Source of the DNA: Desulfosarcina sp. BuS5
GTDB taxonomy: Bacteria; Desulfobacterota; Desulfobacteria; Desulfobacterales; BuS5
Direction: 5' to 3'
Assembly: GCF_028752835.1 (NCBI RefSeq)
Contig: NZ_CP087952.1
Location: 3,408,501 to 3,472,500, forward strand
Length of the DNA: 64,000 nt
In this document: in pieces, positions 41,450-58,979 of the stretch
Layout of the letters: every line of letters begins with the position of its first letter
Position numbering within the stretch: the first letter of the stretch is position 1
Made by a program: the position numbers and the translations under genes
Notes under the pieces: model-generated
Database searches by the model: none
Told to the model about the DNA's origin: nothing
Seen by the model: only the letters and a program-made list of their open reading frames with translations

Positions 41450-43208
41450 AAACTTAAAAGGATTTCTTGAAGCTCTCGATAGGGCAGGCGAGATTAATTA
41501 TATTTCCGAACCTGTATCCGTTCGTCTTGAAATAAGCAGATTTACAGACCGGGAATCCAAAAGACCGGAAGGTGGTAAGGCACTTTTTTTTAAGAATGTT
41601 AAAGAATCTCCATTCCCTGTTGTGACTAACATTTTTGGCAGTACCCGCCGAATATGCATGGCGCTGGGTGTGGACAACCTCGACAGCCTGGGTGCAAGAA
41701 TACGGGAATTCACAGAGCTGAACCCGCCCAAAAATTTTAAGGAAGCACTAAATATTATACCTTTGGCAATTAATGCTTCAAATTTTTTTCCACGTGCTTT
41801 TAAAGGCAAAAGTGCTCCATGCCAGGAGATCGTTTTAAGAGGCGCCGAGGTTGATCTTTCAAAACTGCCTGTTTTATGGTGCTGGCCGGGAGATGCCGGA
41901 CCTTTTGTGACCCTTCCTCTTGTTTTTACCAAAAGTCTTGTCACGGGCAGGCGTAACGCAGGGATGTACCGCTTGCAGATATTCGATAAAAATACAACGG
42001 GTATGCACTGGCATATCCACAAAGATGGATCTCATTACTATAATGAATATTGCAAGGCCGCAAAAAGAATGCCTGTGGCAGTTGCCATCGGCGCGGACCC
42101 TGCCGTAACATATGCTGCCACCGCACCCATGCCCAGGGGTATTGATGAGATGATCCTGGCAGGTTTTATAAAAAAAAAACCTGTCAGAATGGTCAGGTGT
42201 TTAACCATTGACATGGAAGTGCCGGCTGAAGCTGAATTTATTTTAGAAGGATATGTGGATCCCGGAGAATTCAGGAGGGAAGGCCCTTTTGGGGATCATA
42301 CCGGATACTATTCATTGGCGGACGATTATCCCGTTTTTCATGTAACTGCAGTTACTCACCGAAAAAATCCTGTATACAATGCAACTCTTGTGGGGCGACC
42401 TCCCATGGAGGATTGTTACCTGGCAAAAGCGACTGAACGTCTTTTTTTGCCTATGCTTCAAACGGTAATGCCTGAAATATGCGATTACTGGTTTCCCTGG
42501 GAGGGAGTATTTCACAACATAGTAATAGTTGCAATTGACAAAGAATTTCCCGGCCACGCCCAGAAAATCATGAGCGGCCTTTGGGGGCAGGGCCAGATGA
42601 GTTTCTGCAAGGCTATTATTATAGTTGATAAAAACATTAATCCCGCTGATCCTGAAATGGTATTGAAAGAGCTATTGACAAAATTTGATATTACCTCTGA
42701 TATAACAATAACAAAAGGCGTACTTGATGTTCTCGACCACTCTTCTCCTTTTACAAATTTCGGCAACAAAATTGGTATAGATCTTACAGAAAGATTCAGT
42801 GGGGAGCCGCCAAGATCCGGCGATGCCTTGTATACCAAAGAACCCGGAATTCCAAACGAACCGGTAGAAATTAATAATTCCAGGCAGTTGTTTCAGGACT
42901 CATTCAAAAATAATACTATTGCAAATCGGATTATTGCTTTTTCAGTTGAAAAAGATGAATATAGAGGAGGAAAACATTTTGCGGATATCCTGCTATCTGC
43001 AACTAATTTGGAGAGTTTCAATATTTTAATTTTGTTTGATAATAGTATCGATTTATCAGATAATTCCACGCTGCTCTGGAAGCTCTTCAATAATGTTGAC
43101 CCAGGTCGGGATTTAATTTTTAAAGGCAAACGGGTGGTAATAGATGCCTGCAAAAAATTGCCTGTTGACGGGCATGCCAGGGAATGGCCTGAAGAGTTGA
43201 TATTATAA
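41442..43208 (+). CDS. ubiD: UbiD-family decarboxylase (menaquinone pathway)
   Basis: A 588-residue prFMN-dependent decarboxylase. The Arg/Glu catalytic region shows REGPFGDHTGYYSLAD and the metal/prFMN site MHWHIHKDGSHYYNEY is present, with MYRLQIFDKNTTG before it. It probably decarboxylates the prenylated dihydroxynaphthoate (MqnL role). The start is TTG at 41442, overlapping the ubiX stop by eight bases; the next ATG lies deep in the domain. The length (588) is longer than E. coli UbiD (~497), with an extra C-terminal part. The stop overlaps the ATG of the following kinase gene. Confidence 0.92.
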   Translation: MYKNLKGFLEALDRAGEINYISEPVSVRLEISRFTDRESKRPEGGKALFFKNVKESPFPVVTNIFGSTRRICMALGVDNLDSLGARIREFTELNPPKNFKEALNIIPLAINASNFFPRAFKGKSAPCQEIVLRGAEVDLSKLPVLWCWPGDAGPFVTLPLVFTKSLVTGRRNAGMYRLQIFDKNTTGMHWHIHKDGSHYYNEYCKAAKRMPVAVAIGADPAVTYAATAPMPRGIDEMILAGFIKKKPVRMVRCLTIDMEVPAEAEFILEGYVDPGEFRREGPFGDHTGYYSLADDYPVFHVTAVTHRKNPVYNATLVGRPPMEDCYLAKATERLFLPMLQTVMPEICDYWFPWEGVFHNIVIVAIDKEFPGHAQKIMSGLWGQGQMSFCKAIIIVDKNINPADPEMVLKELLTKFDITSDITITKGVLDVLDHSSPFTNFGNKIGIDLTERFSGEPPRSGDALYTKEPGIPNEPVEINNSRQLFQDSFKNNTIANRIIAFSVEKDEYRGGKHFADILLSATNLESFNILILFDNSIDLSDNSTLLWKLFNNVDPGRDLIFKGKRVVIDACKKLPVDGHAREWPEELIL

Positions 43209-44056
43209 TGAAAGATATCGAAAAAAACAAAGAACAGTTAATAGCTGAACTGAAAAAACTCCGCACGCGGATGGCAGAGCTGGAATCCTGTAAACCCAGG
43301 GGCGAACAGACAGATTGTAACAGTAAAATAATAGATGACCGACGCCATCAAGCTATGAGGCTGGATGTGGTCAGTACCCTTGCTGGAGGTATTGCGCATG
43401 ATTTTAATAATTTGCTTATGGGGATACAGGGTAATGTTTCATTGATGTATTTAAATACAAAGCCGGATCATCCCAACTATAAGAAATTGCAGAGCATTGA
43501 GGAGAATATCGAAAGCGGGGCCGAGATTACCAGGCAAATTTTAGGTTTTGCAAGAGGTGGTAAATACCATTTCAAACCTGTCAACCTTAATGAAATTGTA
43601 AAAAAAACCGTTATCATGTTTGGAGGTTCAAGGCGCGAAATCAGGATAAAAGACGAATACCAGGAAAATTTATATAGAGTCAGGGCTGATCAGATACAGA
43701 TAGAACAGGTTCTCTTCAGTCTTTTTACAAACGCCTGGGAGGCTATGCCTGATGGAGGTAATATTTACATTAAGACCAGGGATATTGTTCTTAATAACAA
43801 TAACATCAGACCGCTCGGTGTTCCTGCAGGAAGATACGCCCAGATCACAGTAAAAGATAACGGAGCCGGTATGGATAACGCCACAAGGCAGAGAGTATTT
43901 GAACCATATTTCACAACAAAAGAGAGGGGCAGAGGCACCGGACTGGGCCTGGCCGCTGCTTTCGGTATAATAAAAGGGCATGGCGGTATGATTGAGGTGG
44001 AGAGTGAGAAGGCCAAGGGGACTACAGTTGTATTTTGCCTGCCAGCGTTGAAATAG
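43208..44056 (+). CDS. Soluble histidine kinase (NtrB-like catalytic core)
   Basis: A 282-residue kinase without membrane spans. A short coiled-coil N-terminus (KNKEQLIAELKKLRTRMAELE) leads to the H box GGIAHDFNNLL and the HATPase domain with VLFSLFTNAWEAMP, VKDNGAGMD and GRGTGLGLAAA. All catalytic motifs are present. It starts within the ubiD stop (ATGA-type overlap) but has no functional link to menaquinone synthesis. No regulator is adjacent on the same strand. The stop codon TAG is immediately followed by repeat copy i. Confidence 0.85.
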   Translation: MKDIEKNKEQLIAELKKLRTRMAELESCKPRGEQTDCNSKIIDDRRHQAMRLDVVSTLAGGIAHDFNNLLMGIQGNVSLMYLNTKPDHPNYKKLQSIEENIESGAEITRQILGFARGGKYHFKPVNLNEIVKKTVIMFGGSRREIRIKDEYQENLYRVRADQIQIEQVLFSLFTNAWEAMPDGGNIYIKTRDIVLNNNNIRPLGVPAGRYAQITVKDNGAGMDNATRQRVFEPYFTTKERGRGTGLGLAAAFGIIKGHGGMIEVESEKAKGTTVVFCLPALK

Positions 44057-44131
44057 TAGGGGTTCAAGATTTTGAACCCCTACATAGAAACAATTGATAA
44101 CGCATTGAATTTATTTATGTGACGATCGCTA
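44056..44131 (-). repeat. Structured intergenic repeat, family A (copy i, partial)
   Basis: Sense strand is minus. The stop codon TAG of the radical SAM gene is followed by CGATCGTCACATAA, a diverged core AATTCAATGCGTTATC, and the GTAGGGG hairpin (44056-44083). The distal arm is missing; the element ends at the kinase gene's stop. It lies between convergent genes. Confidence 0.8.
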
Positions 44132-45418
44132 ACTGTACTTTATGTCCTGTAACAACATAGTCTCCAGGGCAGCATCAAAAAACTTTTTTTTGCAATCTTT
44201 ATTTTTTACATTCCCATCTTTTAAAAATGTCATGTACCGGCATCCTCCGAAGCATAATGGAAGATACCTGCATTCCAGGCATTCGCTGTCTTTCCATAAG
44301 CCAAGGTTATAAGAATCTGTATAATCCTTGATGCCGTTTTCAAGGTCTCCGACCTCAAACTCCTTTTTACCATTCAAGGTGGGGCATTTATAAATTTTAC
44401 CGTCAAAGTTAACCACATAAGAATCCTTTGATTCGATCATGCAGGCCATGGGAGCAGGCTTGGGGGTAAACCAGCCTCTTTTTAATATCTCCTCCCTTAA
44501 AAAACTGTCGGCATTAATCACCCATGGTTCATTACACGATCCGCATTCATTCTTTAACCCTATCCTCCGGCCGGAATCAGACGGAAGATCCATTATCGGA
44601 TCAAACTTGACGGAATGTATTTTGTCAGGCCCAAGCCCCTCTTCAAGAAGATAGTCTAGGAGCATGACGAATTTTTTATAATTATCCTGGCGGTAATTAC
44701 CACCTATGCTGATTTTTACTATATCACAGGTTTTTTTAATATTATCTATTATTATATCAAAGCTCTTTGCGCCGGATTTAAATGGCCGTGATTTATTGTG
44801 GATTTCCGGGGGTCCGTCTATTGTAATTTTTATATTTTGGAGCCCGAGTTTGACAAGTTCTTCAGCCTTTTTACGGGTAAAAAGAGAACCATTGGTTACC
44901 ATTCCTGAACAAAAGGATACACCCTGTTGTTCAGAATAAGATACCAGAGCTTCTGAAATTGATTTCATCCTGTCAAAACTCAGCATCGGCTCTCCACCGT
45001 AAAAATCTATGAGAAGCCTTTCTTTATTATTGGCAAGTCTTTTTTTAATGAATTCTATGAGAAGCTTTTCGGTACTGTCTAACAGGTATAACTTACCTTT
45101 CATCCCTTCTTCAAAACAGTACGGGCAGGCAAAGTTGCAGTCCAGATTCAAGACAACCGTAAGCTTGAGCAAAGAGTTGTTTTTGTTAATATCATCCATA
45201 TAATGGAGCATGGACTGCTTTTCATCTGCGGCATCAGGTACTATCATGCCTAATTCTTTTAGCAGGGATGCATCAGAATCGGAAATTGTTCCTTTTTCAA
45301 TGGCCTGGAATGTTTCTTCGGATATAAGAATTTTTGAGGCATGTTTGGTGGAAAATAACAGGAGGCTGCCGGGTTGATCTTTGAAAGGATAACTTTTCAG
45401 GTAATGGGAAAGCTGCAT
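44129..45418 (-). CDS. Radical SAM/SPASM peptide maturase, geopeptide type
   Basis: A 429-residue enzyme expected to install a modification on a ribosomal peptide. Residues 1-70 form a leader-binding-like domain; the radical SAM cluster motif CNFACPYC has Cys94, Cys98 and Cys101, with DFYGGEPML after it. The SPASM region has CGSCNEP, MACMIESKDSYVVNF, YKCP, SECLECRYLPLCFGGCRYM and a final Cys, enough for two auxiliary [4Fe-4S] clusters. From memory, the tail (LCFGGCRYM ... QDIKYS) matches the putative geopeptide maturase family first noted in Geobacter. A 43-residue precursor gene lies 215 nt upstream on the same strand. The stop codon is at the end of repeat copy i. Confidence 0.88.
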   Translation of the reverse strand: MQLSHYLKSYPFKDQPGSLLLFSTKHASKILISEETFQAIEKGTISDSDASLLKELGMIVPDAADEKQSMLHYMDDINKNNSLLKLTVVLNLDCNFACPYCFEEGMKGKLYLLDSTEKLLIEFIKKRLANNKERLLIDFYGGEPMLSFDRMKSISEALVSYSEQQGVSFCSGMVTNGSLFTRKKAEELVKLGLQNIKITIDGPPEIHNKSRPFKSGAKSFDIIIDNIKKTCDIVKISIGGNYRQDNYKKFVMLLDYLLEEGLGPDKIHSVKFDPIMDLPSDSGRRIGLKNECGSCNEPWVINADSFLREEILKRGWFTPKPAPMACMIESKDSYVVNFDGKIYKCPTLNGKKEFEVGDLENGIKDYTDSYNLGLWKDSECLECRYLPLCFGGCRYMTFLKDGNVKNKDCKKKFFDAALETMLLQDIKYS

Positions 45419-45633
45419 ATTTATTTGATCCTCATTTCTTGCGATGTTTCATGGATTTAAATCATATCTATGAAATCACCGCAAGAACTAATTGCTATTT
45501 GCAAGTTGCAAGTTGCAATTCAGGAGAGATGGGGTTGAGGCAGTGTAAAAATTAAATAGTTTAAAACTGCCTTAATCAATCAAGCAAAACGGGCAATTTA
45601 TAACAAAAATGCAGCATCAGATTTCGTTTATTA

Positions 45634-45765
45634 CTACCATCCGCCGCTTGACGGCATGTATGGCCCAAAGCAGCAAAATGAAAGCCATCCATCTCCATTT
45701 TTTATACCTTTATCAAAAACAACGATTCCATTTTTTTCTTTACGGTTTCTTTTGTTTTCCTTCAT
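45634..45765 (-). CDS. Small precursor peptide for the radical SAM maturase
   Basis: A 43-residue gene missed by length cut-offs. AAGGAG lies 6 nt before ATG 45765. The peptide has a basic leader (MKENKRNRKEKNG), then IVVFDKGIKNGDGW, LSFCCFGP and YMPSSGGW up to TAG. The CC pair followed by Gly-Pro and the aromatic/Gly-rich tail look like a core region. By recollection, geopeptides share a basic start, an IVV-D-G segment and CC-x-G near the end. Position directly upstream of a SPASM maturase, and a strong -24/-12 promoter ahead of it, support a real RiPP precursor. The nature of the modification cannot be read from sequence. Confidence 0.78.
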   Translation of the reverse strand: MKENKRNRKEKNGIVVFDKGIKNGDGWLSFCCFGPYMPSSGGW

Positions 45766-45826
45766 GATGATCTCCTTAAATAAATTTTATAATTTATGTT
45801 ACTGTAACTTTATGCTACTATAATAA

Positions 45827-45841
45827 GCACTTATTGTGCCA
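45827..45841 (-). promoter_or_regulatory. Sigma-54 (-24/-12) promoter for the peptide/maturase genes
   Basis: On the minus strand TGGCAC (45841-45836) is followed by AATAA and GTGC (45830-45827). This gives the invariant GG and GC with 10 nt between them, as required for sigma-54. The predicted start near 45815 leaves a ~50-nt leader before the precursor's ribosome site. The -12 element lies inside a small palindrome AATAAG-CA-CTTATT. Confidence 0.72.
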
Positions 45842-45885
45842 GCATAAATTAAAAATAACTTATGGAGAAAAAAAGATTGAAAAAA

Positions 45886-47754
45886 TCAAAAATGAATTCT
45901 CAATCCGGCTTCCACCCATCTTTGCGGATTTTCCCTATCCATCTGAACATATTGTGATCCATTGAAGATATTGTGGGCTGTGAAAAATATTTCGGAAGAT
46001 ACTTTTGTTTTAAAATCTAATTTTTTAGTAATATTAAGATCCCAAATAAATGTATTATAGTGTGAATCTAAAGACGCTCTATCCTCAATATTCCACCAGG
46101 TATATTGTCCAAAAAGCTCCGCATGAAATGTTTTTTTATCATCGTATTTTATGCTTAGATCATAAGTATACATATTGGGTGAACCGGATTCTTCAGATGA
46201 ATTGATATGAGCATATGAAAAGCCTGCAAAACAGGTAAAATTATAAAAAGGTATGGTCTGTACCTCAATTTCAATCCCCTGTCGCCTGGTTTTACCATGA
46301 TTAGTAAATCTTGGTTGACCTATAGTGGGTGGCCTTAACTCTTTATGAAGATTATGAAAAAAGTATGTCGTTTTTATCCATAAATATTTGGCAGCCGCAG
46401 TTTCAAAACCTCCCTGGTATGACCAGATCTCTTCGGAATCAAGCGATCTGTTCTGTTCATAAGTTAAGCTGCCACCCGATACATACGGCAAGGGCGGAAT
46501 AGTAAAGCCTCTTGCCACAGATCCTCTTAAAATCGATTCTTTTCCGATTTGATATGTTGCTCCTATGCTCGGACTTATAAACGATCCTGTGAGGCTGTTA
46601 TAATCATATCTAAAGCCGGGTGTGATCGACAAATCTTTTATAATTATGGTATCATTGGCGTAAAGCGCCCATTTTTTGATATCAGGATCCGTTTTGCTGG
46701 TTTGGGAAAAATTTGGCACACTATATTTTTCGGTCTGGCCAAGTTCGCCATGGTCAATATCAAAACCTAATACAGCAGTATGGTACTGGTTTGACCATAC
46801 TATTGTTGCATTGCCTCCTATAGTTTGATCATCATATTTATAACGCGACTCTGTATTGTGGAACGAGAGAACGGATTTCTGCTTAAAATGGTACGCTGCA
46901 ATGCTGAAGTCAAGATTGTCGTTAAGCCTGGCTTCTATTAATGCTTTAGAATGGAATGTTCTGGTATTCATCTTACCTGAAAAATTTTCTCCGAAATCTG
47001 TTTCAGGCTCAGTGTATCCCATACTGATAATTGCATTAATTTTTTTCGATACCGGAATCCTGAACTTGGAAAAAAAACTGTTATTGTCGAAATGCCTCGA
47101 GTTTCTTAAACCGTCAGATTTTTGGCGCGCGCCAAACAAATAACACCCCACCGGCCCTGCCAGCCCTGAAACCTCGGCCCTGTAATCCCGGGTATCACGC
47201 TCTCCGAATGAAGCCTGAACAGTACCTGACGGTATTTTTGTATCTCCGGCGGACTTGGTTATGATATTAACCACCCCCCCGAGGGATGATCCCCAGGCTG
47301 ACGAGGCAGGTCCTTTTATGATTTCTATCCGCCTGACAATTCCTACCGGAATTGAAATTGTTTCAGGGGAGTTGTTTGCAAGCTGGTTCCAGGTTATTCC
47401 ATCCAGCAGAACCCGAATATTTCTTTCATTGGAACCCTGTATTGTCATTAAAGCAGGGCTGCCGAAATCATGATTAAAACCACGTAAAAATATGCCGGGC
47501 ACCCTGTCTAAAACTTCCGAGATTGTATGGGCATTCATCCTTTCAATCTCTTTTGCTGTTATTACGGTTATATTTTCAGCGACTTGTGAAACAGACTTGG
47601 GATGTCTCGTGGCTGAAATTACCAGCTCTTTTTCCTGGTAAAACATCCGGAGAATCTGCATTTCATCTTCGATGGTGGAGAGATTGGCATCACAGATAAA
47701 AGCTGTGGTGATTAAAAAAAATAGGCTTAAAGTATAAACTTTAATATTAAACAA
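45886..47754 (-). CDS. TonB-dependent outer-membrane receptor
   Basis: A 622-residue receptor: a signal peptide (LFFLITTAFI), a TonB-box-like ELVISATRHP near residue 48, a plug domain (ENITVITAKEIERMNAHTI; VLLDGITW; IEIIKGPASSAWGSSLGGVV), and a 22-strand-type barrel ending in an aromatic residue (AGLRIHF), as usual for outer-membrane insertion. The length and plug resemble BtuB/CirA-type receptors for cobamides, siderophores or metal complexes; the ligand is not clear. It is encoded upstream of the precursor peptide on the same strand with 120 nt between, and divergently from a binding protein and a hybrid kinase. Confidence 0.9.
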   Translation of the reverse strand: MFNIKVYTLSLFFLITTAFICDANLSTIEDEMQILRMFYQEKELVISATRHPKSVSQVAENITVITAKEIERMNAHTISEVLDRVPGIFLRGFNHDFGSPALMTIQGSNERNIRVLLDGITWNQLANNSPETISIPVGIVRRIEIIKGPASSAWGSSLGGVVNIITKSAGDTKIPSGTVQASFGERDTRDYRAEVSGLAGPVGCYLFGARQKSDGLRNSRHFDNNSFFSKFRIPVSKKINAIISMGYTEPETDFGENFSGKMNTRTFHSKALIEARLNDNLDFSIAAYHFKQKSVLSFHNTESRYKYDDQTIGGNATIVWSNQYHTAVLGFDIDHGELGQTEKYSVPNFSQTSKTDPDIKKWALYANDTIIIKDLSITPGFRYDYNSLTGSFISPSIGATYQIGKESILRGSVARGFTIPPLPYVSGGSLTYEQNRSLDSEEIWSYQGGFETAAAKYLWIKTTYFFHNLHKELRPPTIGQPRFTNHGKTRRQGIEIEVQTIPFYNFTCFAGFSYAHINSSEESGSPNMYTYDLSIKYDDKKTFHAELFGQYTWWNIEDRASLDSHYNTFIWDLNITKKLDFKTKVSSEIFFTAHNIFNGSQYVQMDRENPQRWVEAGLRIHF

Positions 47755-48063
47755 TTTTAATCTCGTATTTACTAAATAGAGAAATGTTTTTTTTCGCTGA
47801 TTGATAGAGTGGTAAAAAAAAATATTGCGTCTTCTGTTTTTTGAGAAAATTCCTAAAAACTCTTTTAAAAGGAATGGAAAAGAGATATTAGATATATGTA
47901 AGTACTAAATTATTTGTTTATTATATAGAATAGGAATATATTTTGCGACTTGTTAAGTTATTAATAACAATCTTTTAAATTAGTTGCAATATTATTATTT
48001 GCAAATTTATATTTTGAATTTTTATTTAAAAAACCTACAGGGTACTGCAAAATATACATTTAA
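47755..48063. other. AT-rich divergent intergenic region with two inverted repeats
   Basis: No gene is visible. It separates the TonB receptor (minus) from the binding-protein gene (plus). Two operator-like repeats stand near the plus-strand gene: TTGTTA-N9-TAACAA (47950-47970) and TTGCAA-N9-TTGCAA (47984-48004). Clear promoter boxes cannot be chosen in such AT-rich DNA. Confidence 0.4.
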
Positions 48064-48978
48064 ATGAAAAATTACGTGTTCATTGTAACAATGTCAATAC
48101 TTTTTTTTTCTGTGCCTGCTGCTTCAGCCGAAAAAATCCTGGCAGTCCAAAGCATCAGGATCGCCCCTTATGAGCAAGCTTTAAAGGGGTTTGAATCGAT
48201 ATGCAAATTAAATATTCGACGCTTTGTCCTTTCTGATTACAAAGGCGTTGATATTACGCATAAAATAAAATCGCTACGCCCGGATATGATCCTTGCAATA
48301 GGAGCAACTGCACTTTCTAAAGTAAAGCAGACCAGGGACATCCCTGTCGTATATTTCATGGTACTTGATCCAAAATCTGTAATTTCTTCCGATGCAAAGA
48401 ATATTTCCGGTATAAGCATGAATATCCCGCAGAAAGATCAACTTTCTATAATTGTCAAAATTTTTCCTGACGCTAAAGATATTGGAGTTATATATAACCC
48501 TGAAAAAACAGGTTTTATGATTAAAAGAGCCGAAGCGGCAGCCTGGGATGCGGGCATAAATCTGATTAAAAAAACTATTAACGACCCTAAAGACGCAGCT
48601 TCACGAATAATGGAGATGCAGGGAAAAATCGATCTGTTCTGGCTGTTTCCTGATACCTCTGTGCTAATGCCTGAGACAATTAAATTTTTATTCCTTTTTT
48701 CCATGAATAATAAAATACCTGTAATTGCATTTTCTAAAAATTATCTGGGAATGGGAGCCTTGCTGTCAATCGGAATTGATTCTTACGATATCGGACGTCA
48801 GGCCGGTGAATTGGCAAAGAAAATTTTAAAGAGTCATAAAAAATCATTGAATAAACATATTGACGTCAGGAAGCCGGTTATATCGTTGAATAAAAAAATA
48901 GCTGATAAGTTGGAAATAAAGGTTAACAAGCATAATTTTAATGCTTTTTGGGACATAGATGAACCTGAATTTAATTAA
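48064..48978 (+). CDS. Periplasmic ABC substrate-binding-like protein (PF04392 type)
   Basis: A 304-residue secreted protein: a signal peptide ending at about ASA-EKIL, then a two-lobed periplasmic binding fold like the TrpX/YtpP family (ILAIGATALSKVKQTRDIPVVYFMV; GISMNIPQKDQ; IGVIYNPEKTG; AFSKNYLGMGALLSIGIDSYDIGRQAG). No permease or ATPase is adjacent. Instead the gene overlaps by 20 nt with a membrane hybrid kinase, so it probably acts as the periplasmic sensor partner for that kinase rather than as part of a transporter. The ligand is unknown. Confidence 0.82.
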   Translation: MKNYVFIVTMSILFFSVPAASAEKILAVQSIRIAPYEQALKGFESICKLNIRRFVLSDYKGVDITHKIKSLRPDMILAIGATALSKVKQTRDIPVVYFMVLDPKSVISSDAKNISGISMNIPQKDQLSIIVKIFPDAKDIGVIYNPEKTGFMIKRAEAAAWDAGINLIKKTINDPKDAASRIMEMQGKIDLFWLFPDTSVLMPETIKFLFLFSMNNKIPVIAFSKNYLGMGALLSIGIDSYDIGRQAGELAKKILKSHKKSLNKHIDVRKPVISLNKKIADKLEIKVNKHNFNAFWDIDEPEFN

Positions 48979-50950
48979 AACATTTAAGGAAGGCTTCGGT
49001 ATAAGAATTTTTATCCTCTTTACCGTTTTTACATTCCTTGTTTCTATCGGGTTTACCGGATTTTTTATGCATTTCCAGAGCAAAGCCATGGAGCAGGCTT
49101 TGAAAAACAACGGTAAAATACTGGCAAATATTCTTGCGTATAATGCTAAAATAGGGGTTTTTTCGGAAAATATCGACCTTTTAAAAAATCCTGTTGACGG
49201 TATTTTTCAGCAAGAGGAAGTATTCATGGTGACTGTTTATAATAAGGCAGGAGAAATCTTAATAAACAATAAAAAATCCAATTATGACAAGTATAACAAA
49301 ACTATCAATATCTATGAGAATATATCTGATAAAATTTTTAAAAATATAGAGGCGTATAATACTGCATTTTTTTCAGATCATAAGGATAGTGTAGGATTCT
49401 GGTCCAAAGTGGTTTCGGTGGAGACTTCCACAAATGATGAATCCTTGTTTTTTGATCAGGACATGCCTTTGAATAATGTCAGAACCATCGGTTTTGTAAG
49501 GGTTCTGCTTAGCAAGCGAATTCTGCATGGCCGGCTTCTATCTCTTTGCATACGAAGTATCTATATAGCACTTTTCTTTTGGATGGCAGGTTCCATTGTT
49601 GGTTTTTTTATCCTTAAGTCGATTATTAAACCTTTAAACCAGTTAACCAGGGGAGTTAATGCCTTTGGTGAACATGGGGTAATAGACAAAATTCCGATTC
49701 ATACAAAGGATGAAATAGGCAAACTGGCCGATGCTTTTAATAATATGTACGAATCATTAAGGAAAAGAGATTCTGAAAAAAAACAGTTGGAAGAACAACT
49801 TCTGCATTCCCAGAAAATGGAGGCAATAGGCACTTTGGCAGGCGGTATAGCACATGACTTTAATAATATCCTGGGTGTTATTGTGGGCTATACGGAGCTA
49901 TCGTTGCTGGATATGCCAGAGACAGATCCGCTGCGCGGCAAACTTGATCAGGTGCTTAAGGCCAGCGGACGGGCGACCGATCTTGTAAAACAGATTCTCG
50001 CTTTTAGCCGCAAGGATAAACAGAAGCTTACCCTGACCAGAATATACCCAATAGTTAAAGAAGCCCTCAAGATGCTGCGATCATCTCTGCCGACAACCAT
50101 TGAAATTCGTACGGACATAAAAAAGATCAATTCTTCAATTTTATCAGATCCTTCTCAAATACATCAAATCCTGATGAACCTTTGTACAAATGCGGCCCAT
50201 GCCCTGCCTGATAATAAAGGGTTGTTGGAGGTCAGCCTGGCTGAAGTGGATATTGATCAGGATAGAGCGGCGGGACATACCGACCTGCAGGCCGGCCGTT
50301 ATCAAAAACTTACTGTTCGTGATAATGGCGAAGGGATCAAGCCTGAAATCATGGATCGAATTTTTGATCCGTTTTTTACAACAAAGGGCCCGGGGAAAGG
50401 TACGGGCATGGGCCTGGCGGTTATCCACGGGATAGTAAAAAGATGTAAGGGAGCCATAATCTTTGATAGTGAACCTGGCAAAGGAACAATATTTCAGATT
50501 TTTTTTCCCACAGTTGATTCCAACATACATGAAAAACTCGAAATTCATAAAAATATTCCCAATGGTAATGAAAAAATCCTTTACATAGATGATGAAAAAC
50601 AGATAATAGATTTTGGCCAGGAAATCCTGGAAGGATTAGGTTACAAAGTTGTCGCAAAAACCACACCAACGGATGCCCTTGAAATATTCAGGGCGGATCC
50701 TGACAGCTTCGATATAGTTATTACGGATATGACAATGCCCAAGATGACGGGTATAGAGCTTGCAGTGCAGATAAGCATTATAAGACCGGGGATCCCGATT
50801 ATTCTTTGTTCAGGCTATAATGCAAATATCACCAAGGAAAAGGCTCGTGAGGCAGGCATAAGAGAGATTATAATGAAACCATTCGCTATAAATGAAATAG
50901 CCTGTGCTATCAGGGATGTTCTGGATAATAATGAAAAATATGATGCATAA
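48959..50950 (+). CDS. Hybrid sensor histidine kinase with C-terminal receiver
   Basis: A 663-residue membrane kinase: a span near residues 15-35, a ~150-residue periplasmic domain, a second span near 200-222, HAMP (~222-275), H box GGIAHDFNNILGVI, HATPase with LMNLCTNAAHALP, VRDNGEGI and GTGMGLAVI, and a receiver at the C-terminus with phospho-Asp in FDIVITDMTMPKMTG and Lys in IIMKPF. All catalytic residues appear intact. It overlaps the binding-protein gene, forming a likely sensor pair, and is followed by queF. No output regulator is encoded nearby, so an Hpt and a separate regulator are presumably needed. Confidence 0.9.
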   Translation: MNLNLIKTFKEGFGIRIFILFTVFTFLVSIGFTGFFMHFQSKAMEQALKNNGKILANILAYNAKIGVFSENIDLLKNPVDGIFQQEEVFMVTVYNKAGEILINNKKSNYDKYNKTINIYENISDKIFKNIEAYNTAFFSDHKDSVGFWSKVVSVETSTNDESLFFDQDMPLNNVRTIGFVRVLLSKRILHGRLLSLCIRSIYIALFFWMAGSIVGFFILKSIIKPLNQLTRGVNAFGEHGVIDKIPIHTKDEIGKLADAFNNMYESLRKRDSEKKQLEEQLLHSQKMEAIGTLAGGIAHDFNNILGVIVGYTELSLLDMPETDPLRGKLDQVLKASGRATDLVKQILAFSRKDKQKLTLTRIYPIVKEALKMLRSSLPTTIEIRTDIKKINSSILSDPSQIHQILMNLCTNAAHALPDNKGLLEVSLAEVDIDQDRAAGHTDLQAGRYQKLTVRDNGEGIKPEIMDRIFDPFFTTKGPGKGTGMGLAVIHGIVKRCKGAIIFDSEPGKGTIFQIFFPTVDSNIHEKLEIHKNIPNGNEKILYIDDEKQIIDFGQEILEGLGYKVVAKTTPTDALEIFRADPDSFDIVITDMTMPKMTGIELAVQISIIRPGIPIILCSGYNANITKEKAREAGIREIIMKPFAINEIACAIRDVLDNNEKYDA

Positions 50951-51347
50951 TAATTCAAAAAAAAATATTGGCGCCATGGAGAACATCAAAACCGATATCC
51001 TTGAGGTTATAGAATATAAATATCACGGCAAAAGAAATATCGACATTACCATTAAGCAACCGGAATTTACATCTGTTTGTCCCATGACCGGACTCCCGGA
51101 TTTCGGATGCATAACAATCAATTATAAACCTTATGCTAAAATCGTAGAATTGAAATCACTAAAATTTTATCTGCTGCAGTACAGGAATGCAGGAGTTTTT
51201 TACGAACATCTGGTGAATCGTATTCTGGATGATCTGGTTAAGGTCCTTGCACCGTTTGATATGCAGATTGAAGGTGATTTTACAGCCCGGGGCGGAATCA
51301 CAACCAGAGTTAGAGCAGCATACAACCGGGAAGATGAAATTGACTAA
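50940..51347 (+). CDS. queF: PreQ0 reductase (7-cyano-7-deazaguanine reductase)
   Basis: NADPH-dependent reduction of preQ0 to preQ1 in queuosine tRNA modification. It is of the short unimodular type. PEFTSVCPMTGLPDFG holds Cys47 and Asp54 with the same spacing as B. subtilis Cys55/Asp62, and ELKSLKFYLLQYRNAGVFYEH is the QueF signature (NADPH binding). Several in-frame ATGs (50904, 50931, 50940, 50943, 50976) are possible; none has a strong ribosome site, and I chose 50940 by comparison with family length. The gene overlaps the end of the kinase gene, so translation is probably coupled. No preQ1 riboswitch was seen. Confidence 0.9.
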   Translation: MMHNNSKKNIGAMENIKTDILEVIEYKYHGKRNIDITIKQPEFTSVCPMTGLPDFGCITINYKPYAKIVELKSLKFYLLQYRNAGVFYEHLVNRILDDLVKVLAPFDMQIEGDFTARGGITTRVRAAYNREDEID

Positions 51348-51352
51348 TAAGG

Positions 51353-51438
51353 AAAAATCTTAAATATTCGTACCTGTAGTACGTTGATCGAAGATTTTGA
51401 CCGATAACGCATTGAAATTTATTATCTGACAATCTATA
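51353..51438 (-). repeat. Structured intergenic repeat, family A (copy h, partial)
   Basis: Sense strand is minus. Arm TATAGATTGTCAGATAA, then AATTTCAATGCGTTATCGG, then a hairpin with arms AAAATCTT/AAGATTTT (51391-51398 with 51354-51361). The distal outer arm is missing. It overlaps copy d by four bases (TATA), so the two stand in tandem in the same orientation. Confidence 0.75.
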
Positions 51439-51539
51439 GATTGTCAGATAATAAATTTCACAAGGCCAGAGGGAGGAAGGCGTATTGTAATACTCCAACG
51501 ACCGATAACGCAGTGAAATTATTTATGTGACAATCTATA
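51435..51539 (-). repeat. Structured intergenic repeat, family A (copy d)
   Basis: A full 105-bp copy, sense minus. Arms TATAGATTGTCACATAA and the complement of TATAGATTGTCAGATAA. Core AATTTCACTGCGTTATCGG, a short GTATT/AATAC hairpin instead of the GTAGGGG one, then CTGGCCTTGTGAAATTT. The dusB stop codon TAG is part of its terminal TATATAG. Confidence 0.88.
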
Positions 51540-52509
51540 TAGATCGATCATCTTGTAATACCTTCATATAGGATTTAATCAAGCCTAAAGCTTCACCCTC
51601 GGACGATATCCTGTTAATTGATTTGCGAAATCTGCCGCTGCCGGGCAAACCTTTGACAAACCAGCAAAGCCGGCTGCGCATCATGCGGCAGGCATGCTTT
51701 TCTCCAAAATATTCCACTGAATTTTTAAGATATTTTACCATAACTGCAAAGCGGTGGACAAGATTTATATCACACCGGTCTCCCCTTAGCAGCGCCAGGA
51801 TTTGTTTAAAAATTAATGGGTGCCCGATTGCTGCCCTGCCTATCATAACCGCGTCACAGCCAGTCTCTTTAAGCATTTGCAAAGCATCGTCAGGATGAGC
51901 AATATCCCCATTTCCGATTACCGGAATTGAAATATTCTTTTTAACGTCTGCAATAACCTGCCAGTCTGCATTACCTCTGAAACCCTGTGTCGCCATTCGA
52001 GGATGTACGGTAATGGCATCCGCACCCCTTTCCTGAGCTATTTCGGCAATCTTCATAGCATCTTTTCCTGATTTGTTCCACCCTGATCTGATTTTTATGG
52101 TAACAGGGATCTTTACGGCCTGGCGTAGAGCCGTTATAACCGCAGCCGCTTTATCAGGGTCTTTCATCAAGGCTGCGCCTGATCCTGTTTTAAGTACCTT
52201 TTTAACTGAACATCCAAAATTTATGTCAATCATGTCGGCTCCCACGGACTCGACCATGCGGGCTGCTTCAGCCATAATGGCCGGATCAGAGCCGAAGATC
52301 TGAACCGAAAGAGGCTTTTCGGCGGGAAGGCTGTCAAGGAGTTGTTCCGTTTTTTGGGATTTATAGACCAGACCATTAGCGCTGACCATCTCTGAGCAGA
52401 CAAGAGCCGCTCCGGCTTCTTTGGCAAGCAGCCGAAAAGGGAGATTGGTAATTCCTGCCAGAGGAGCCATAATTGTTATATTATCAAGTTTAACGGAACC
52501 GATTTTCAT
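51535..52509 (-). CDS. dusB: tRNA-dihydrouridine synthase
   Basis: A 324-residue FMN enzyme reducing uridine in the tRNA D-loop. Motifs: APLAGITNLPFRLLA at the N-terminus, DINFGCSVKKVLKTGSGAAL with the Cys-containing family loop (here GCSVKKV rather than GCPVKKV), KIRSGWNKSG, HPRMATQGFRG (catalytic region) and VIGNGDI with DAVMIGRAAIG for FMN phosphate. The length is normal for DusB. The stop lies in repeat copy d. The ATG overlaps the stop of the DUF1848 gene by four bases, so the two form an operon. Confidence 0.92.
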   Translation of the reverse strand: MKIGSVKLDNITIMAPLAGITNLPFRLLAKEAGAALVCSEMVSANGLVYKSQKTEQLLDSLPAEKPLSVQIFGSDPAIMAEAARMVESVGADMIDINFGCSVKKVLKTGSGAALMKDPDKAAAVITALRQAVKIPVTIKIRSGWNKSGKDAMKIAEIAQERGADAITVHPRMATQGFRGNADWQVIADVKKNISIPVIGNGDIAHPDDALQMLKETGCDAVMIGRAAIGHPLIFKQILALLRGDRCDINLVHRFAVMVKYLKNSVEYFGEKHACRMMRSRLCWFVKGLPGSGRFRKSINRISSEGEALGLIKSYMKVLQDDRSI

Positions 52510-53960: not shown

Positions 53961-54284
53961 ATGAAAACTGAAGATTTGGTCGCTAACCTCGGTTTGGATC
54001 TTGAAGATGTAAAAGAGTTGCTGGAATTATATGTAGGCGCAACCTCATCTGATCTTAAGGCTATGCAGGAAGCCATCGATAATAATGATGCGGATATAAT
54101 TCATGAAAGAGCTCATTCCATAAAAGGCGCGTCCGGCAATCTTGGGCTTACTGATTTCTATGAATTGGCTAAAGAGATTGATGATCAGGCGCGTACAAAC
54201 AAGCTGAATGGCCTGGAAACAATATGCAATGAGTTTGCCGGCAAGTTTCAGCAACTGGTTCAGGAGATTGAAAACAGTTGTTGA
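53961..54284 (+). CDS. Histidine phosphotransfer (Hpt) protein
   Basis: A 107-residue Hpt domain relaying phosphate between receiver domains. The phospho-His is in IIHERAHSIKGASGNLG (near residue 52), followed by LAKEIDDQAR, with the usual four-helix pattern. AGGAGG precedes the ATG. It overlaps or abuts the sensor kinase gene that follows, and a sigma-54 regulator comes after that, so the three form a phosphorelay operon. The hybrid kinase at 48959, which ends in a receiver, is another possible partner. Confidence 0.88.
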   Translation: MKTEDLVANLGLDLEDVKELLELYVGATSSDLKAMQEAIDNNDADIIHERAHSIKGASGNLGLTDFYELAKEIDDQARTNKLNGLETICNEFAGKFQQLVQEIENSC

Positions 54285-55908
54285 TTATCTCATTACACCC
54301 AAAGAATATGGGGGGCGGCTCTCCGGCAAGAAGCAAAAGGATGTCAAATTGTTTGCCGGACGATTAAAAACATACTTTACAATCAATACGGCTTTTTTTT
54401 TATTTATCGGAATGCTCCTGATAGATCTGGTTATTGTAAAATTGGATCAAAAAGTTCTTTTAAAATCAGAAATTTTAAAAGGGTTTTTCCTTCTTTCCGC
54501 CTTTGAGAGCAGTCTGCAGCAGTCTGCAGAAGAAGAAAATAGTTTTTTTAGTATTAAAACCAAATGTTTATTCCGTACTTTTTTAAAAGAATCAGGCTTT
54601 AACTTTGCATTGTTTATAGATATGCAAAAAAGAAAATATTTTTTCGGAAAGTGTGAAATCAATCGGAACAAGCTTGTGGTTCTAAGCAAAAAAGCCGGAT
54701 TGACTGAAAAAAGAATAATTTCATTTTCTGATTCAATCCGATCCGGTTCGATTTGGGGTGTTTTATGGAAAGAACAGCGATATCTAATTATTTTCTCTCC
54801 TCTATCCATAAATAAAGATTCATCGGCAAGCGTCAGTATAGTCCTCGATCTTGTTAAAATATATAATCAGACCGGGCAGACCCAAAAGATCATTTTTATC
54901 TACCTGTTAATAAACACAGCCATATTAACATTTATCAGTGTCAAACGAATCTCCCGGGCAACAGTAACGCCACTCAAAAGACTGCTGAACAATGCTGAAG
55001 AATTCAGGGAAGATGGGGACATGTTTTTAATACATGCAAAAGAGAGTGATGAGTTCAGCCGGCTTTCTTCTTCCTTAAACCGCATGTTACAACGGATTGC
55101 CAATGACAAGGAGAAGCTCAGGGTTACTGTAAGGTCTCTTGAAAAAACAAATCTAAAACTCAAGGAGGCTCAAAAGGAACTCGTTAAGGCGGAAAAGCTG
55201 GCTTCCGTAGGCCGCTTGTCAGCCGGTATTGCCCATGAAATCGGGAATCCGATCAGCATAATTATCGGTTATCTGGAACTGCTCAAGCAGCAGAACATCA
55301 GCAATAATGAAAAAAACGATTTTCTACATCGAGCAAAAGATGAAATAAACAGGATTAATACAATAATCCGGCAGCTTCTTGATTTTTCAAGAACTTCAGA
55401 GGAAAATATCAAAAACATTTCCGTGCATGAAATTATAAATGACATATCACAAATCTCTAAGATACAACCATGGTTGTCGGGTATAACAATAGAACTCCGT
55501 TTAGCTGCCGCAAAAGATACTATTAATGCAGATTCAAATCAATTAAGACAGGTCTTTATGAATCTGATTATCAATGCCTCTGATTCCATAGCCTCTTCTC
55601 CTGAAAAGATAAAAGGAAAAATATATATAACCACTGAAAATATTGAAAAAATATTCTTTGGAGCAGCCGAGCCGGTTCAAATGCTGAAAATCATGTTTAC
55701 GGATAATGGCCCGGGAATTTCCGAAGCTGATATTGAAAATATTTTCGATCCCTTTTATACAACTAAAGAGCCTGGCAAAGGAACCGGTTTGGGTCTTTAT
55801 GTTTGTTTTATGATAATCGATAAAATGAGTGGAAAGATAGAAGTTAAAAGCAGCGAATATAATACAACAATATCGATTACCCTGCCTTTATTAAATCATC
55901 ACTTCTGA
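54208..55908 (+). CDS. Membrane sensor histidine kinase of the Hpt operon
   Basis: A kinase of up to 566 residues: a first span (TAFFLFIGMLLIDLVIV), an extracytoplasmic domain (~85-225), a second span (IIFIYLLINTAILTFI), HAMP-like linker, coiled coil, H box ASVGRLSAGIAHEIGNPISI, and HATPase with NLIINASDSIA, FTDNGPGI and GKGTGLGLYV. The start is uncertain: ATG 54208 lies inside the Hpt gene without a ribosome site, and TTG 54268 is an alternative close to the Hpt stop. It pairs with the sigma-54 regulator encoded 9 nt downstream, which is now disrupted. Confidence 0.88.
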   Translation: MAWKQYAMSLPASFSNWFRRLKTVVDYLITPKEYGGRLSGKKQKDVKLFAGRLKTYFTINTAFFLFIGMLLIDLVIVKLDQKVLLKSEILKGFFLLSAFESSLQQSAEEENSFFSIKTKCLFRTFLKESGFNFALFIDMQKRKYFFGKCEINRNKLVVLSKKAGLTEKRIISFSDSIRSGSIWGVLWKEQRYLIIFSPLSINKDSSASVSIVLDLVKIYNQTGQTQKIIFIYLLINTAILTFISVKRISRATVTPLKRLLNNAEEFREDGDMFLIHAKESDEFSRLSSSLNRMLQRIANDKEKLRVTVRSLEKTNLKLKEAQKELVKAEKLASVGRLSAGIAHEIGNPISIIIGYLELLKQQNISNNEKNDFLHRAKDEINRINTIIRQLLDFSRTSEENIKNISVHEIINDISQISKIQPWLSGITIELRLAAAKDTINADSNQLRQVFMNLIINASDSIASSPEKIKGKIYITTENIEKIFFGAAEPVQMLKIMFTDNGPGISEADIENIFDPFYTTKEPGKGTGLGLYVCFMIIDKMSGKIEVKSSEYNTTISITLPLLNHHF

Positions 55909-57022
55909 GGCGACGCCATGAATGAAAAAAAAACCGTAAAGACCAAACCTTTTAAGAAGAAACTATTGGTAATTGATGACGAAAAAAATATGCGTCACAT
56001 GCTCTCTGCTATGCTTGCACGGTCAGGGTATATGGTTGATACCGCTCCCGACGGTCAAGCAGGCTTGCAGAAAGTAAATAACTCCATCCAAAAATTAAAA
56101 CCATACGCCTTTATTCTTTGTGATCTTAAAATGCCCAATATGAGCGGAATGGAATTCCTTGATTCGGTCCGGGACAAAATCAAGGAGACAACCGTTATAA
56201 TGATGTCCGCCTATGGCACAATCGATACCGCCATCAAAGCCATGCAGCAGGGCGCATACGACTATATATCAAAACCGTTTAATATTGATGAGGTTCTGCT
56301 GGCTCTGAAAAAAGCCGAGGAACGGGAAAACCTTAAACATGAAAACTTTAAACTTAAAGAACGGCTCCGGAAGATTGAAGATAGTTATAGCTTCGGCAGC
56401 ATGATTGCCGGAAGCGCCAAAATGGAATCTGTTTTCAGGCTTGCCAAAAAAGCTTCCGAATACGATTCAACCGTTTTAATCCAGGGAGAAAGCGGAACAG
56501 GCAAAGAGCTGATTGCAAAAGCTCTGCATTTCAACGGTATTAGAACAAAGAAAGCTTTTGTTCCTGTTAATTGTGGAGGAATCCCGGATAATCTGCTTGA
56601 GAGTGAATTTTTTGGTTATAAAAAAGGCGCTTTTACCGGCGCGGATAGAGACAAAAAAGGGTTTTTTGAAGAAGCGGGCATGGGCTCTATTTTTCTTGAT
56701 GAAATCGGAGAGCTTTCCTTAAATTTGCAGGTAAAGCTTCTCCGTACTTTACAGGAAAACGAAATTAGACCTTTAGGTGATTCGCAAACAAGGAAAATAG
56801 ATGTCCGTGTTATTGCCGCCACATCAAAAAAACTCGAATATGAAGTAAAAAAAGGAGCCTTCCGTGAGGATCTATTTTACAGGCTTAATGTTTTACCGAT
56901 AAATATTCCTCCATTGAGGGATCGTATTGAAGATATACCGATTTTAAGCAACCATTTCCTTGAAAAGTTCAATAAAAAATTCAACAAAAACATATCGGAA
57001 ATATCGCCCGGAGCATTATCTA

Positions 57023-57028
57023 TACTTA
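57023..57028 (+). repeat. Left 6-bp target-site duplication (TACTTA)
   Basis: TACTTA directly precedes the left IS end and is repeated at 58674-58679. Deleting one copy restores the interrupted reading frame. Confidence 0.92.
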
Positions 57029-58673
57029 GTATCTGCTGAATTTCTTTTTTATGAAAGAAATGCTTTGCTATCCATAGCAGTATATGCCATTTTTTAAATT
57101 GCAGCTAAATGGTATTTTAAGCACTCTAAAAAGGATAGGAGGTATTCTGATGATAAAAAATACTTTTGAAGAAGTTCTTTCTGATGAATGGGTGAAAGCA
57201 AATATAACCAATCCAGTTCAGGAATTGGTTATTATCCGTGGGATAATTCCATGGCAAAAAATGATTACAAAGTTGTGTAAATTTTATAACACCAGTCAGG
57301 GTGCTTTTGGAAAATCTCTCAGGATGATGACAGCGATTTTGATTTGTATAAAATACTATCAATTAAGTGATAGGCAAATGGTTAAGCATATAAAAGAAAA
57401 CCACTATATTCAATATTTTTGTAACATCACAAATGAGGAATTGCAAACATGCCTGGATCCGAGTTCTATATGTGTATTTCGAAAACGTATAGGTGAAGAA
57501 GGTGTTGAAATTATAGAAAAAGAAGTTTTTGAGGTTCTACGCAAAGCTGGGATAATACAGGGTGATAATGCTATGATAGATTCAAGCGTATTGAAAAATA
57601 ACGTTATCTATCCAAATGATGTACATTTAATTTTTAAAGCTTTTGACAAAATGAAACAATTTGCCGTTTTGCATCAAATCTCCTTGTGGTGGGACAATAA
57701 TGAAGTAAAAAAATTATGGCGAGAATTTTTTTTGAACAAAAAACAAAACCGTTTGGAATGGTTACTCAAATTTAATATATTATTTATTCCTGCTCTAAAA
57801 ATATTTGATAAAAAAGTTGAATCATTAAAGACCACAAAGAAAAAACAAATAAAAGCTGACAATATGTTTGCTATTCTTACTATTCTTGAAGCACAAACCT
57901 TAGAAAAACTCGAAGGTAAAAAACAGATAAAAAACCGGATTGTATCCATTGATGAACCGGATGCCCGCCCGATTGTAAAAGGAAAAGAGCATCCGAAGTG
58001 TGAATTCGGCACAACAATGGAAATGACTTTCAATAGGGAAGGATTCATGATTACCATTGAAAATTTTATCGGTAATCCAAATGATAAAACGCTTTTTGCT
58101 GGAACACTCGAACAGTTCAAAAAACGGATGAAAGGCGAACCGGAAAATATTATTACCGACCTTGGTTACAGAAGCAATGGTAATTTTAAAATTGCAGACA
58201 ATATCAGTAACGTTTTTTTGGGGCGTAAAAAAGATGTATCCGAAGAAAAACAGAGTTTTTGCTGTAAAGCCCGTTCAGCAACAGAAGGTTTCATAGCTAT
58301 TGCAAAAAATATTAGAGGTTTTGGATGCAGTCTTTATAGAGGATTTGAAGGAGACCGTATATGGTCATTGCTTTGTCAAACCGCTTATAATCTTAAAAAG
58401 TTTATTCAGCTTCTAATGGGAGAAAAGATTGAAGAAAAAAAACTGATGAAACTCGGGCTGGCATAAGCCGAACAAGGATTTTATCAAAAATAGTTGATTT
58501 TAAAAAATATGCGGATAGGAGAGGTGCGTCTATAGGTGTTAACAATTTGCCGTTTTTTACCAAAATTCAATTAAAATACCACAAATGAGCTTAAAATTTT
58601 AGATTAAAATTCTCTATGATTAATATATGAACAATGCTGATATACTATGTTATTATCGAAATTCAGCGGATAC
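57029..58673 (+). mobile_element. Complete insertion sequence, 1,645 bp
   Basis: Bounded by 16-bp inverted repeats GTATCTGCTGAATTTC (57029-57044) and the complement of GTATCCGCTGAATTTC (58658-58673), one mismatch, flanked by 6-bp target duplications. It carries a single intact transposase. Size, single long DDE gene, inverted repeats and 6-bp duplication resemble the ISDol1-like group (ISNCY) known from related sulfate reducers; the name is from memory. The insertion looks recent, because both ends, the duplication and the split host gene are well preserved. Confidence 0.93.
57150..58466 (+). CDS. DDE transposase of the 1,645-bp IS
   Basis: A 438-residue transposase. ATG 57150 has AGGAGG 7 nt upstream; an upstream in-frame ATG at 57084 is less likely. 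An N-terminal IS5-like helical domain (QGAFGKSLRMMTAILICIKYY; LSDRQMVKHIKEN) is followed by the first Asp in AMIDSSVLKNNVIYPNDVHL, the second in IITDLGYRSNGNFK, and the Glu in SATEGFIAIAKNIRGFG. An insertion of about 90 residues separates the first two. The YPNDVHL phrase is common in IS5/ISNCY transposases. No frameshift is seen, so it should be active. Confidence 0.88.
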   Translation: MIKNTFEEVLSDEWVKANITNPVQELVIIRGIIPWQKMITKLCKFYNTSQGAFGKSLRMMTAILICIKYYQLSDRQMVKHIKENHYIQYFCNITNEELQTCLDPSSICVFRKRIGEEGVEIIEKEVFEVLRKAGIIQGDNAMIDSSVLKNNVIYPNDVHLIFKAFDKMKQFAVLHQISLWWDNNEVKKLWREFFLNKKQNRLEWLLKFNILFIPALKIFDKKVESLKTTKKKQIKADNMFAILTILEAQTLEKLEGKKQIKNRIVSIDEPDARPIVKGKEHPKCEFGTTMEMTFNREGFMITIENFIGNPNDKTLFAGTLEQFKKRMKGEPENIITDLGYRSNGNFKIADNISNVFLGRKKDVSEEKQSFCCKARSATEGFIAIAKNIRGFGCSLYRGFEGDRIWSLLCQTAYNLKKFIQLLMGEKIEEKKLMKLGLA

Positions 58674-58679
58674 TACTTA
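58674..58679 (+). repeat. Right 6-bp target-site duplication (TACTTA)
   Basis: Matches 57023-57028 exactly and directly follows the right inverted repeat of the IS. Confidence 0.92.
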
Positions 58680-58979
58680 TAAAGCACTCGTGGCCTGGAA
58701 ATGTGAGAGAACTTGAAAATATCATTGAACGGGCTGTAATTTTTTCAGAAAAAAAAATTATTCTTCCGGAAAATCTTCCCCGGGAATTTGGTATCAAAGC
58801 AGGCGCCGCCAGAATTGATGATTTTTTTAAGGGTTTCTCGATAAAAAAAGCTCAAAAAATTATGGAAAAAAGGCTTATACTAAGAGCTCTGGAATCTACC
58901 GGCGGCAACCGTACAAAATCAGCCAAACTTCTTGAAATCAGCCACCCTTCTCTGTTAAGTAAAATAAAAACATACAAAA

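What the first reader, a model, noticed from the sequence alone, without database searches (positions are those of the whole stretch)
45634..45841. Unlisted 43-residue RiPP precursor behind a sigma-54 promoter
The peptide has a strong ribosome site, a basic leader and a core-like tail with FCCFGP and SSGGW, and sits upstream of a SPASM maturase. A GG-N10-GC promoter (TGGCACaataaGTGC) precedes it. The KNGDGW segment also recalls the Lys-Trp crosslink region of streptide (KGDGW), though the spacing differs by one residue. The maturase looks like the geopeptide type, whose products remain, to my knowledge, undefined.
Basis: partly seen in the sequence, partly recalled or inferred. Interest (0 to 1): 0.78.

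Follow-up and report, generated by a model that had tools for sequence, protein, structure and literature searches.

The report
Geopeptide precursor beside its radical-SAM maturase
A 43-residue gene missed by the standard model is the precursor of a poorly understood class of enzyme-modified bacterial peptides (geopeptides), and its relatives almost always sit with the same outer-membrane receptor, binding protein and sensor kinase, which suggests that the finished peptide is taken back up and sensed.

Summary
The small ORF is real. A profile built from 36 relatives, without this sequence, finds it as the best of 837 small ORFs in the window (E 2e-11); the next is 0.4. The adjacent radical SAM/SPASM enzyme scores 560 bits against NCBIfam's geopeptide maturase model (cut-off 400). 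A related small ORF lies beside the maturase in all 40 loci examined. They share a leader strand (IxVLDEGI) and an invariant Cys-Cys core (CC-x-[GAST]-xxx-P-x-R). The curated precursor model TIGR04229 misses the window peptide.

The -24/-12 promoter is better supported than expected: strong sites lie 55-115 bases upstream of 9 of 39 precursors, against 3 of 269 other genes. The streptide comparison fails: KNGDGW lies in the variable spacer and the Lys-Trp spacing is wrong. The SSGGW tail is peculiar to this peptide.

Beyond the finding, the locus is a conserved cassette. A particular TonB-dependent receptor, a PF04392 binding protein without ABC permease, and a membrane histidine kinase accompany the maturase, and the first two co-occur with it across 390 genomes. 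I propose that the peptide, probably with Cys thioether(s), is exported, recaptured and sensed; these steps are inferred. It is a new member of a known, functionally undefined RiPP family.

The parts
45634..45765 (-). geopeptide-type precursor, 43 aa
   Evidence: profile of 36 relatives built without it, E 2.2e-11; homologue beside 40/40 maturases
45703..45726 (-). conserved leader strand IVVFDKGI (residues 14-21), probable RRE-binding segment
   Evidence: aligned in relatives as [IV]xVLDEG[IM]; role inferred from the CteB leader/RRE complex described in PMC8326336
45685..45702 (-). KNGDGW segment (residues 22-27), in the variable spacer
   Evidence: not conserved in any relative
45637..45675 (-). 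core CCFGPYMPSSGGW (residues 31-43); CC invariant, small residue at +3 and Pro at +7 typical, GGW tail peculiar to this peptide
   Evidence: tally over 40 precursors
45772..45777 (-). ribosome-binding site AAGGAG
   Evidence: sequence; similar sites in most relatives
45826..45841 (-). predicted sigma-54 -24/-12 promoter TGGCACAATAAGTGCT
   Evidence: score 8.4; sites of score 7 or more at 9/39 precursors versus 3/269 control genes, Fisher 6e-7; no sigma-70-like site nearby
45436..45487 (-). strong hairpin between precursor and maturase, possible stabiliser or attenuator
   Evidence: 215-nt gap folds with z -3.1; function inferred
44129..45418 (-). geopeptide radical SAM/SPASM maturase with N-terminal RRE-like domain
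   Evidence: TIGR04280 559.6 bits, cut-off 400; CxxxCxxC and seven SPASM Cys invariant; AlphaFold2 pLDDT 93; best PDB match CteB
45886..47754 (-). dedicated TonB-dependent receptor, same strand, directly upstream
   Evidence: PF00593/PF07715, no other Pfam domain; cassette member; co-occurrence
48064..48978 (+). periplasmic binding protein, PF04392 (ABC_sub_bind), no ABC permease nearby
   Evidence: co-occurs with maturase across genomes
48959..50950 (+). membrane hybrid histidine kinase (HAMP-HisKA-HATPase-REC, weak sCache_4), overlapping the binding-protein gene
   Evidence: orthologues at the same place in relatives

Best explanation
The ORF is the precursor of a geopeptide, a RiPP made by a radical SAM/SPASM maturase. 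Shown by computation: the small gene is a conserved family member; its leader strand and Cys-Cys core are the conserved parts; it is probably driven by a sigma-54 promoter; and it belongs to a cassette with a specific TonB-dependent receptor, a PF04392 binding protein and a histidine kinase. Inferred: the leader strand pairs with the maturase's RRE domain, and the enzyme installs one or two thioether links from the Cys-Cys pair to nearby residues of the 10-13-residue tail. General proteases and exporters release the product. The product, perhaps with a bound metal, returns through the TonB-dependent receptor, is caught by the binding protein, and the complex signals through the kinase, which may feed back on the sigma-54 promoter. 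In logic this is a recaptured and sensed peptide (metallophore or autoinducer), comparable to methanobactin. My probabilities: precursor identity 0.97; sigma-54 control here 0.75; thioether chemistry 0.6; dedicated receptor/binding protein/kinase partnership 0.85; recapture and sensing of the peptide itself 0.4.
For: Precursor. Maturase. Promoter. Cassette: a particular TonB-dependent receptor at 39/40 maturase loci by clustering, the fortieth by tblastn; binding protein at 28 and kinase at 26, many others being cut by contig ends. Binding protein in 18 of 20 full-length-maturase genomes and 8 of 370 others (Fisher 6e-23). Receptor in 20 of 20 and 7 of 370 others. The association survives a flip of the receptor gene relative to the maturase (L087-L094). 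Receptor and maturase distances correlate at r 0.875 over 28 loci. NtrC-type activators lie beside the kinase in L088, L090, L091 and L092.
Against: No direct evidence links the mature peptide to the receptor, binding protein or kinase; the cargo could be something else. No dedicated exporter or protease is conserved in the cassette. No sigma-54 activator that pairs with this kinase is identified in the window. Sigma-54 sites are strong at only 9 of 39 precursors, and activators correlate with sites only weakly (p 0.07). Thioether chemistry rests on fold and family similarity alone. The mirror-tree correlation does not correct for the species tree. One genome (G289, 72% complete) has the receptor without the rest on its contig.
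Confidence: 0.62

Rival explanations
1. The peptide is raw material for a small redox cofactor, as PqqA is for PQQ. The Cys-Cys tail is cut out and turned into a cofactor, and the TonB-dependent receptor scavenges it.
For: PQQ precedent (own knowledge); only CC is invariant in the core.
Against: No conserved protease, oxidase or cofactor-dependent enzyme in the cassette; an RRE-SPASM enzyme closest to thioether-forming CteB; a binding protein and kinase point to sensing.
Confidence: 0.2
2. The receptor, binding protein and kinase sense an unrelated nutrient or metal, and the peptide is a secreted effector such as a bacteriocin or metal chelator whose synthesis that module controls.
For: PF04392 relatives of known structure include an ABC solute-binding protein; a kinase plus sigma-54 promoter can be an ordinary nutrient switch.
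Against: The receptor subfamily is almost confined to genomes with the maturase; receptor and maturase are nearly always adjacent; no immunity gene or exporter is conserved.
Confidence: 0.3
3. Streptide-like peptide with a Lys-Trp carbon-carbon crosslink in KNGDGW.
For: Letter similarity only.
Against: Spacer not conserved; wrong spacing; SuiB ranks below CteB among folds.
Confidence: 0.03
4. The GG-N10-GC match is part of a repressor operator (GCAC-N5-GTGC inside TTTATGCT...AGCATAAA), and transcription comes by read-through from the receptor gene.
For: The site is a perfect short inverted repeat inside a longer one; the receptor gene is 120 bases upstream on the same strand.
Against: Sites of the same class recur at other precursors at similar distances, where the receptor gene may point the other way.
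Confidence: 0.2

Closest known systems
NCBIfam geopeptide / geopeptide radical SAM maturase (TIGR04229 / TIGR04280)
   Same: Maturase well above cut-off; precursor beside it with the same leader and CC core; 7 of 21 aligned precursors match TIGR04229.
   Different: The window peptide is not matched by TIGR04229 and carries an extra SSGGW tail.
SCIFF/ranthipeptide maturase CteB and the PapB-type enzymes
   Same: RRE plus radical SAM plus SPASM architecture; CteB is the best solved-structure match.
   Different: About 19% identity in the fold alignment; two adjacent Cys rather than spaced Cys; chemistry unknown.
Methanobactin operons (PMC3621798)
   Same: Small Cys-containing precursor next to a TonB-dependent transporter; re-import logic.
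   Different: Different maturase (MbnB/MbnC), MATE exporter, FecIR-type regulation in one group; here a PF04392 binding protein and a histidine kinase.
Streptide (StrA/StrB, SuiA/SuiB)
   Same: Radical SAM/SPASM RiPP; superficial KNGDGW/KGDGW likeness.
   Different: Lys-Trp spacing, lack of conservation, different regulation.

Membership tests
geopeptide (TIGR04229/TIGR04280) | maturase over the TIGR04280 cut-off next to the small ORF | tested here: met
   559.6 bits, cut-off 400; 215 bp between precursor stop and maturase start
geopeptide (TIGR04229/TIGR04280) | leader IxVLDEGI-like strand and CC core shared with precursors beside other maturases | tested here: met
geopeptide (TIGR04229/TIGR04280) | direct match to the curated precursor model | tested here: inconclusive
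   no hit for the window peptide up to E 10; 7 of 21 aligned precursors hit, best 0.0016. The model is a weak detector of a short family, so this is read as sensitivity, not exclusion
radical SAM/SPASM RiPP maturase with RRE | CxxxCxxC, seven SPASM Cys, N-terminal beta3-alpha3 RRE fold | tested here: met
   C94/98/101; C326, 345, 380, 383, 389, 393, 409 invariant; predicted E7-11 E18-23 E28-33 and three helices
ranthipeptide/sactipeptide | Cys thioether to a peptide carbon | not testable with these tools
   needs mass spectrometry
streptide (KxxxW) | Lys and Trp with three residues between, conserved | tested here: not met
   K22-W27 has four between; absent from relatives
sigma-54 promoter | GG-N10-GC near consensus upstream of the gene, rpoN in the genome, dependence on RpoN | tested here: inconclusive
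   sequence, enrichment and rpoN met; dependence not testable here
methanobactin-like metallophore | metal binding and re-import of the peptide | not testable with these tools
   only a receptor and a binding protein in the cassette

The most novel reading that the evidence does not exclude
Geopeptides are radical-SAM-made peptides that are exported, recaptured by a dedicated TonB-dependent receptor and sensed by a binding-protein/kinase pair that controls their own sigma-54 promoter: a previously undescribed class of peptide signal or metallophore in Desulfobacterota-type bacteria.
Probability: 0.35. Interest if true: 0.8.

Novelty: new member of a known kind. Interest (0 to 1): 0.56.

Why it matters
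Geopeptides exist in databases as a name and two models; I found no paper on them in the open library. The work here fixes the conserved core (Cys-Cys-x-small, then often P-x-R), gives a profile that catches precursors the curated model misses, and names specific partner genes. That turns 'product unknown' into a direct test: does the receptor or binding protein bind the matured peptide, and does the kinase respond to it?

Tried and rejected
Streptide likeness: rejected (spacing, no conservation, fold ranking). Chance ORF: rejected by the held-out profile. General co-location of a common receptor/binding-protein module: tested by searching 390 genomes for the binding protein and the receptor. 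Exceptions without maturase were mostly contigs that end inside or just past the receptor gene; one of them (L107) carries the precursor, apparently frameshifted, at the contig end; one (G289) is an orphan receptor. Link between sigma-54 sites and nearby activators: only p 0.07, not claimed. Rfam: no RNA family in 43000-52000. Literature: no paper on geopeptides of this kind; the hits for the bare string 'geopeptide' look like other compounds and an unrelated program. The genome-contig scan gave only one truncated relative, a close same-genus match cut inside the maturase.

Full report
Observation. The minus-strand ORF 45634-45765 encodes MKENKRNRKEKNGIVVFDKGIKNGDGWLSFCCFGPYMPSSGGW behind AAGGAG, and TGGCACAATAAGTGCT lies 76 bases before its ATG. 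Downstream on the same strand is a 429-aa enzyme that scores 559.6 bits against NCBIfam TIGR04280, the geopeptide radical SAM maturase (cut-off 400). So the description is accurate.

Is the small ORF real? I searched about 390 genomes of the class and 395 of the phylum for the maturase, took out 40 loci and looked for small ORFs nearby. All 40 maturases have a small ORF with the same plan: a charged start, a strand of the type [IV]xVLDEG[IM], a spacer of about 8-13 residues, an invariant Cys-Cys, and usually 8-11 more residues. In one locus (L106) it lies on the strand opposite to the maturase. A profile built from 36 of them, leaving the window peptide out, ranks it first among the window's 837 small ORFs, E 2.2e-11, the next being 0.41. 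Genome-wide there is one significant place (this profile included the window peptide). NCBIfam's own precursor model, TIGR04229 'geopeptide', hits 7 of 21 aligned precursors but not the window peptide, which explains how such a gene could go unlisted.

What is conserved. Over 40 precursors the two Cys are invariant; the residue two after the pair is Gly, Ala, Ser or Thr in 37; Pro is at +7 in 25 and Arg at +9 in 23 (positions counted from the first Cys). The window peptide keeps CC-F-G-P-Y-M-P, then departs with SSGGW. KNGDGW falls in the variable spacer, and its Lys and Trp are one residue further apart than in streptide; no relative has it. The streptide comparison is therefore a coincidence of letters.

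The enzyme. The maturase family keeps the radical SAM motif C94-x3-C98-x2-C101 and all seven SPASM cysteines. The AlphaFold2 model (mean pLDDT 93) begins with three strands and three helices, the RRE arrangement. The best solved match is CteB (E 4.8e-23), the thioether-forming SPASM enzyme; SuiB is weaker. In CteB the leader binds the RRE as a beta strand (review PMC8326336), and the conserved IxVLDEG segment is a natural candidate for the same role. Thioether formation from the CC pair is my inference.

The promoter. I scored GG-N10-GC sites with weights fixed before looking at the results. In upstream regions of 37 precursors, 7 sites reached 7.5 against 0.48 expected. With a real-sequence control, sites of at least 7 placed 55-115 bases before the start occur at 9 of 39 precursors and 3 of 269 other genes of the same loci (Fisher 6e-7, and 2e-5 after removing two of the nine positives, to drop the window and one of a near-identical pair). 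The genome encodes RpoN, and the Geobacter sulfurreducens RpoN consensus TTGGCACGGTTTTTGCT (PMC2725144) agrees with the window's CTGGCACAATAAGTGCT at the GGCAC and TGCT parts but not in the middle. The claim of a sigma-54 promoter is thus supported, though most relatives lack an obvious site and no activator is assigned. The site also forms a short inverted repeat, so an operator remains possible.

The cassette. Directly upstream is a TonB-dependent receptor and, divergent from it, a PF04392 binding protein overlapping a membrane hybrid histidine kinase. Clustering of neighbours over the 40 loci gives the receptor in 39, the binding protein in 28 and the kinase in 26; the fortieth also has all three by tblastn, and many shortfalls are contig ends. 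No ABC permease, exporter or protease is conserved. Gene order is rearranged in part of the set (receptor on the other strand), yet the set stays together. Over 390 genomes the binding-protein subfamily occurs in 18 of 20 genomes with a full-length maturase and in 8 of 370 others (Fisher 6e-23). Of those 8, several hold broken maturase copies, and others end at a contig break beside the receptor gene. The receptor subfamily occurs in 20 of 20 and 7 of 370. Receptor and maturase trees track each other (r 0.875), without correction for species descent. In four loci an NtrC-type activator sits next to the kinase, which would fit a sigma-54 circuit.

Mechanism. I propose that the matured peptide leaves the cell, returns through its own receptor, is caught by the binding protein and reported by the kinase. 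Methanobactin is the nearest working analogy: a Cys peptide beside a TonB-dependent transporter (PMC3621798). It could be a metallophore or a signal; nothing here decides which. Steps shown by computation are the family membership, the conserved residues, the promoter enrichment and the partner set. Chemistry, export, uptake and sensing are inferred.

Novelty. The family is named in NCBIfam, so this is a new member of a known kind. The partner set and the sigma-54 enrichment were not described in any paper I could search, but subscription literature was not available, so priority is unproven.

Noticed in passing
window 55918-58950: An NtrC-type response regulator (55918-57039) is interrupted; a transposase-like ORF lies at 57084-58466 and reading of the regulator's C-terminal part (WPGNVRELEN...) resumes near 58750. 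It is preceded by a histidine kinase at 54208-55908.
   Followed up: partly
window 45419-45633: The gap between precursor and maturase folds into a strong hairpin (z -3.1) just before the maturase start; it may set the precursor-to-maturase ratio.
   Followed up: partly
L085 (G176), upstream of the maturase: Two nearly identical 30- and 32-aa precursors in tandem before one maturase.
   Followed up: no
L091 (G485): Two complete cassettes (kinase, binding protein, receptor, precursor, maturase) in tandem.
   Followed up: no
L107 (G071:C101), last 424 bases past the receptor gene: A precursor whose CC core is out of frame with its leader, at a contig end: decayed gene or assembly error.
   Followed up: partly
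L121 (G289:C170:3856-5763): A receptor of this subfamily without precursor, maturase or binding protein on its contig.
   Followed up: partly
window 43208-44056: A 282-aa histidine kinase without a recognised sensor domain lies convergent to the maturase, also in the nearest relative (L030).
   Followed up: no
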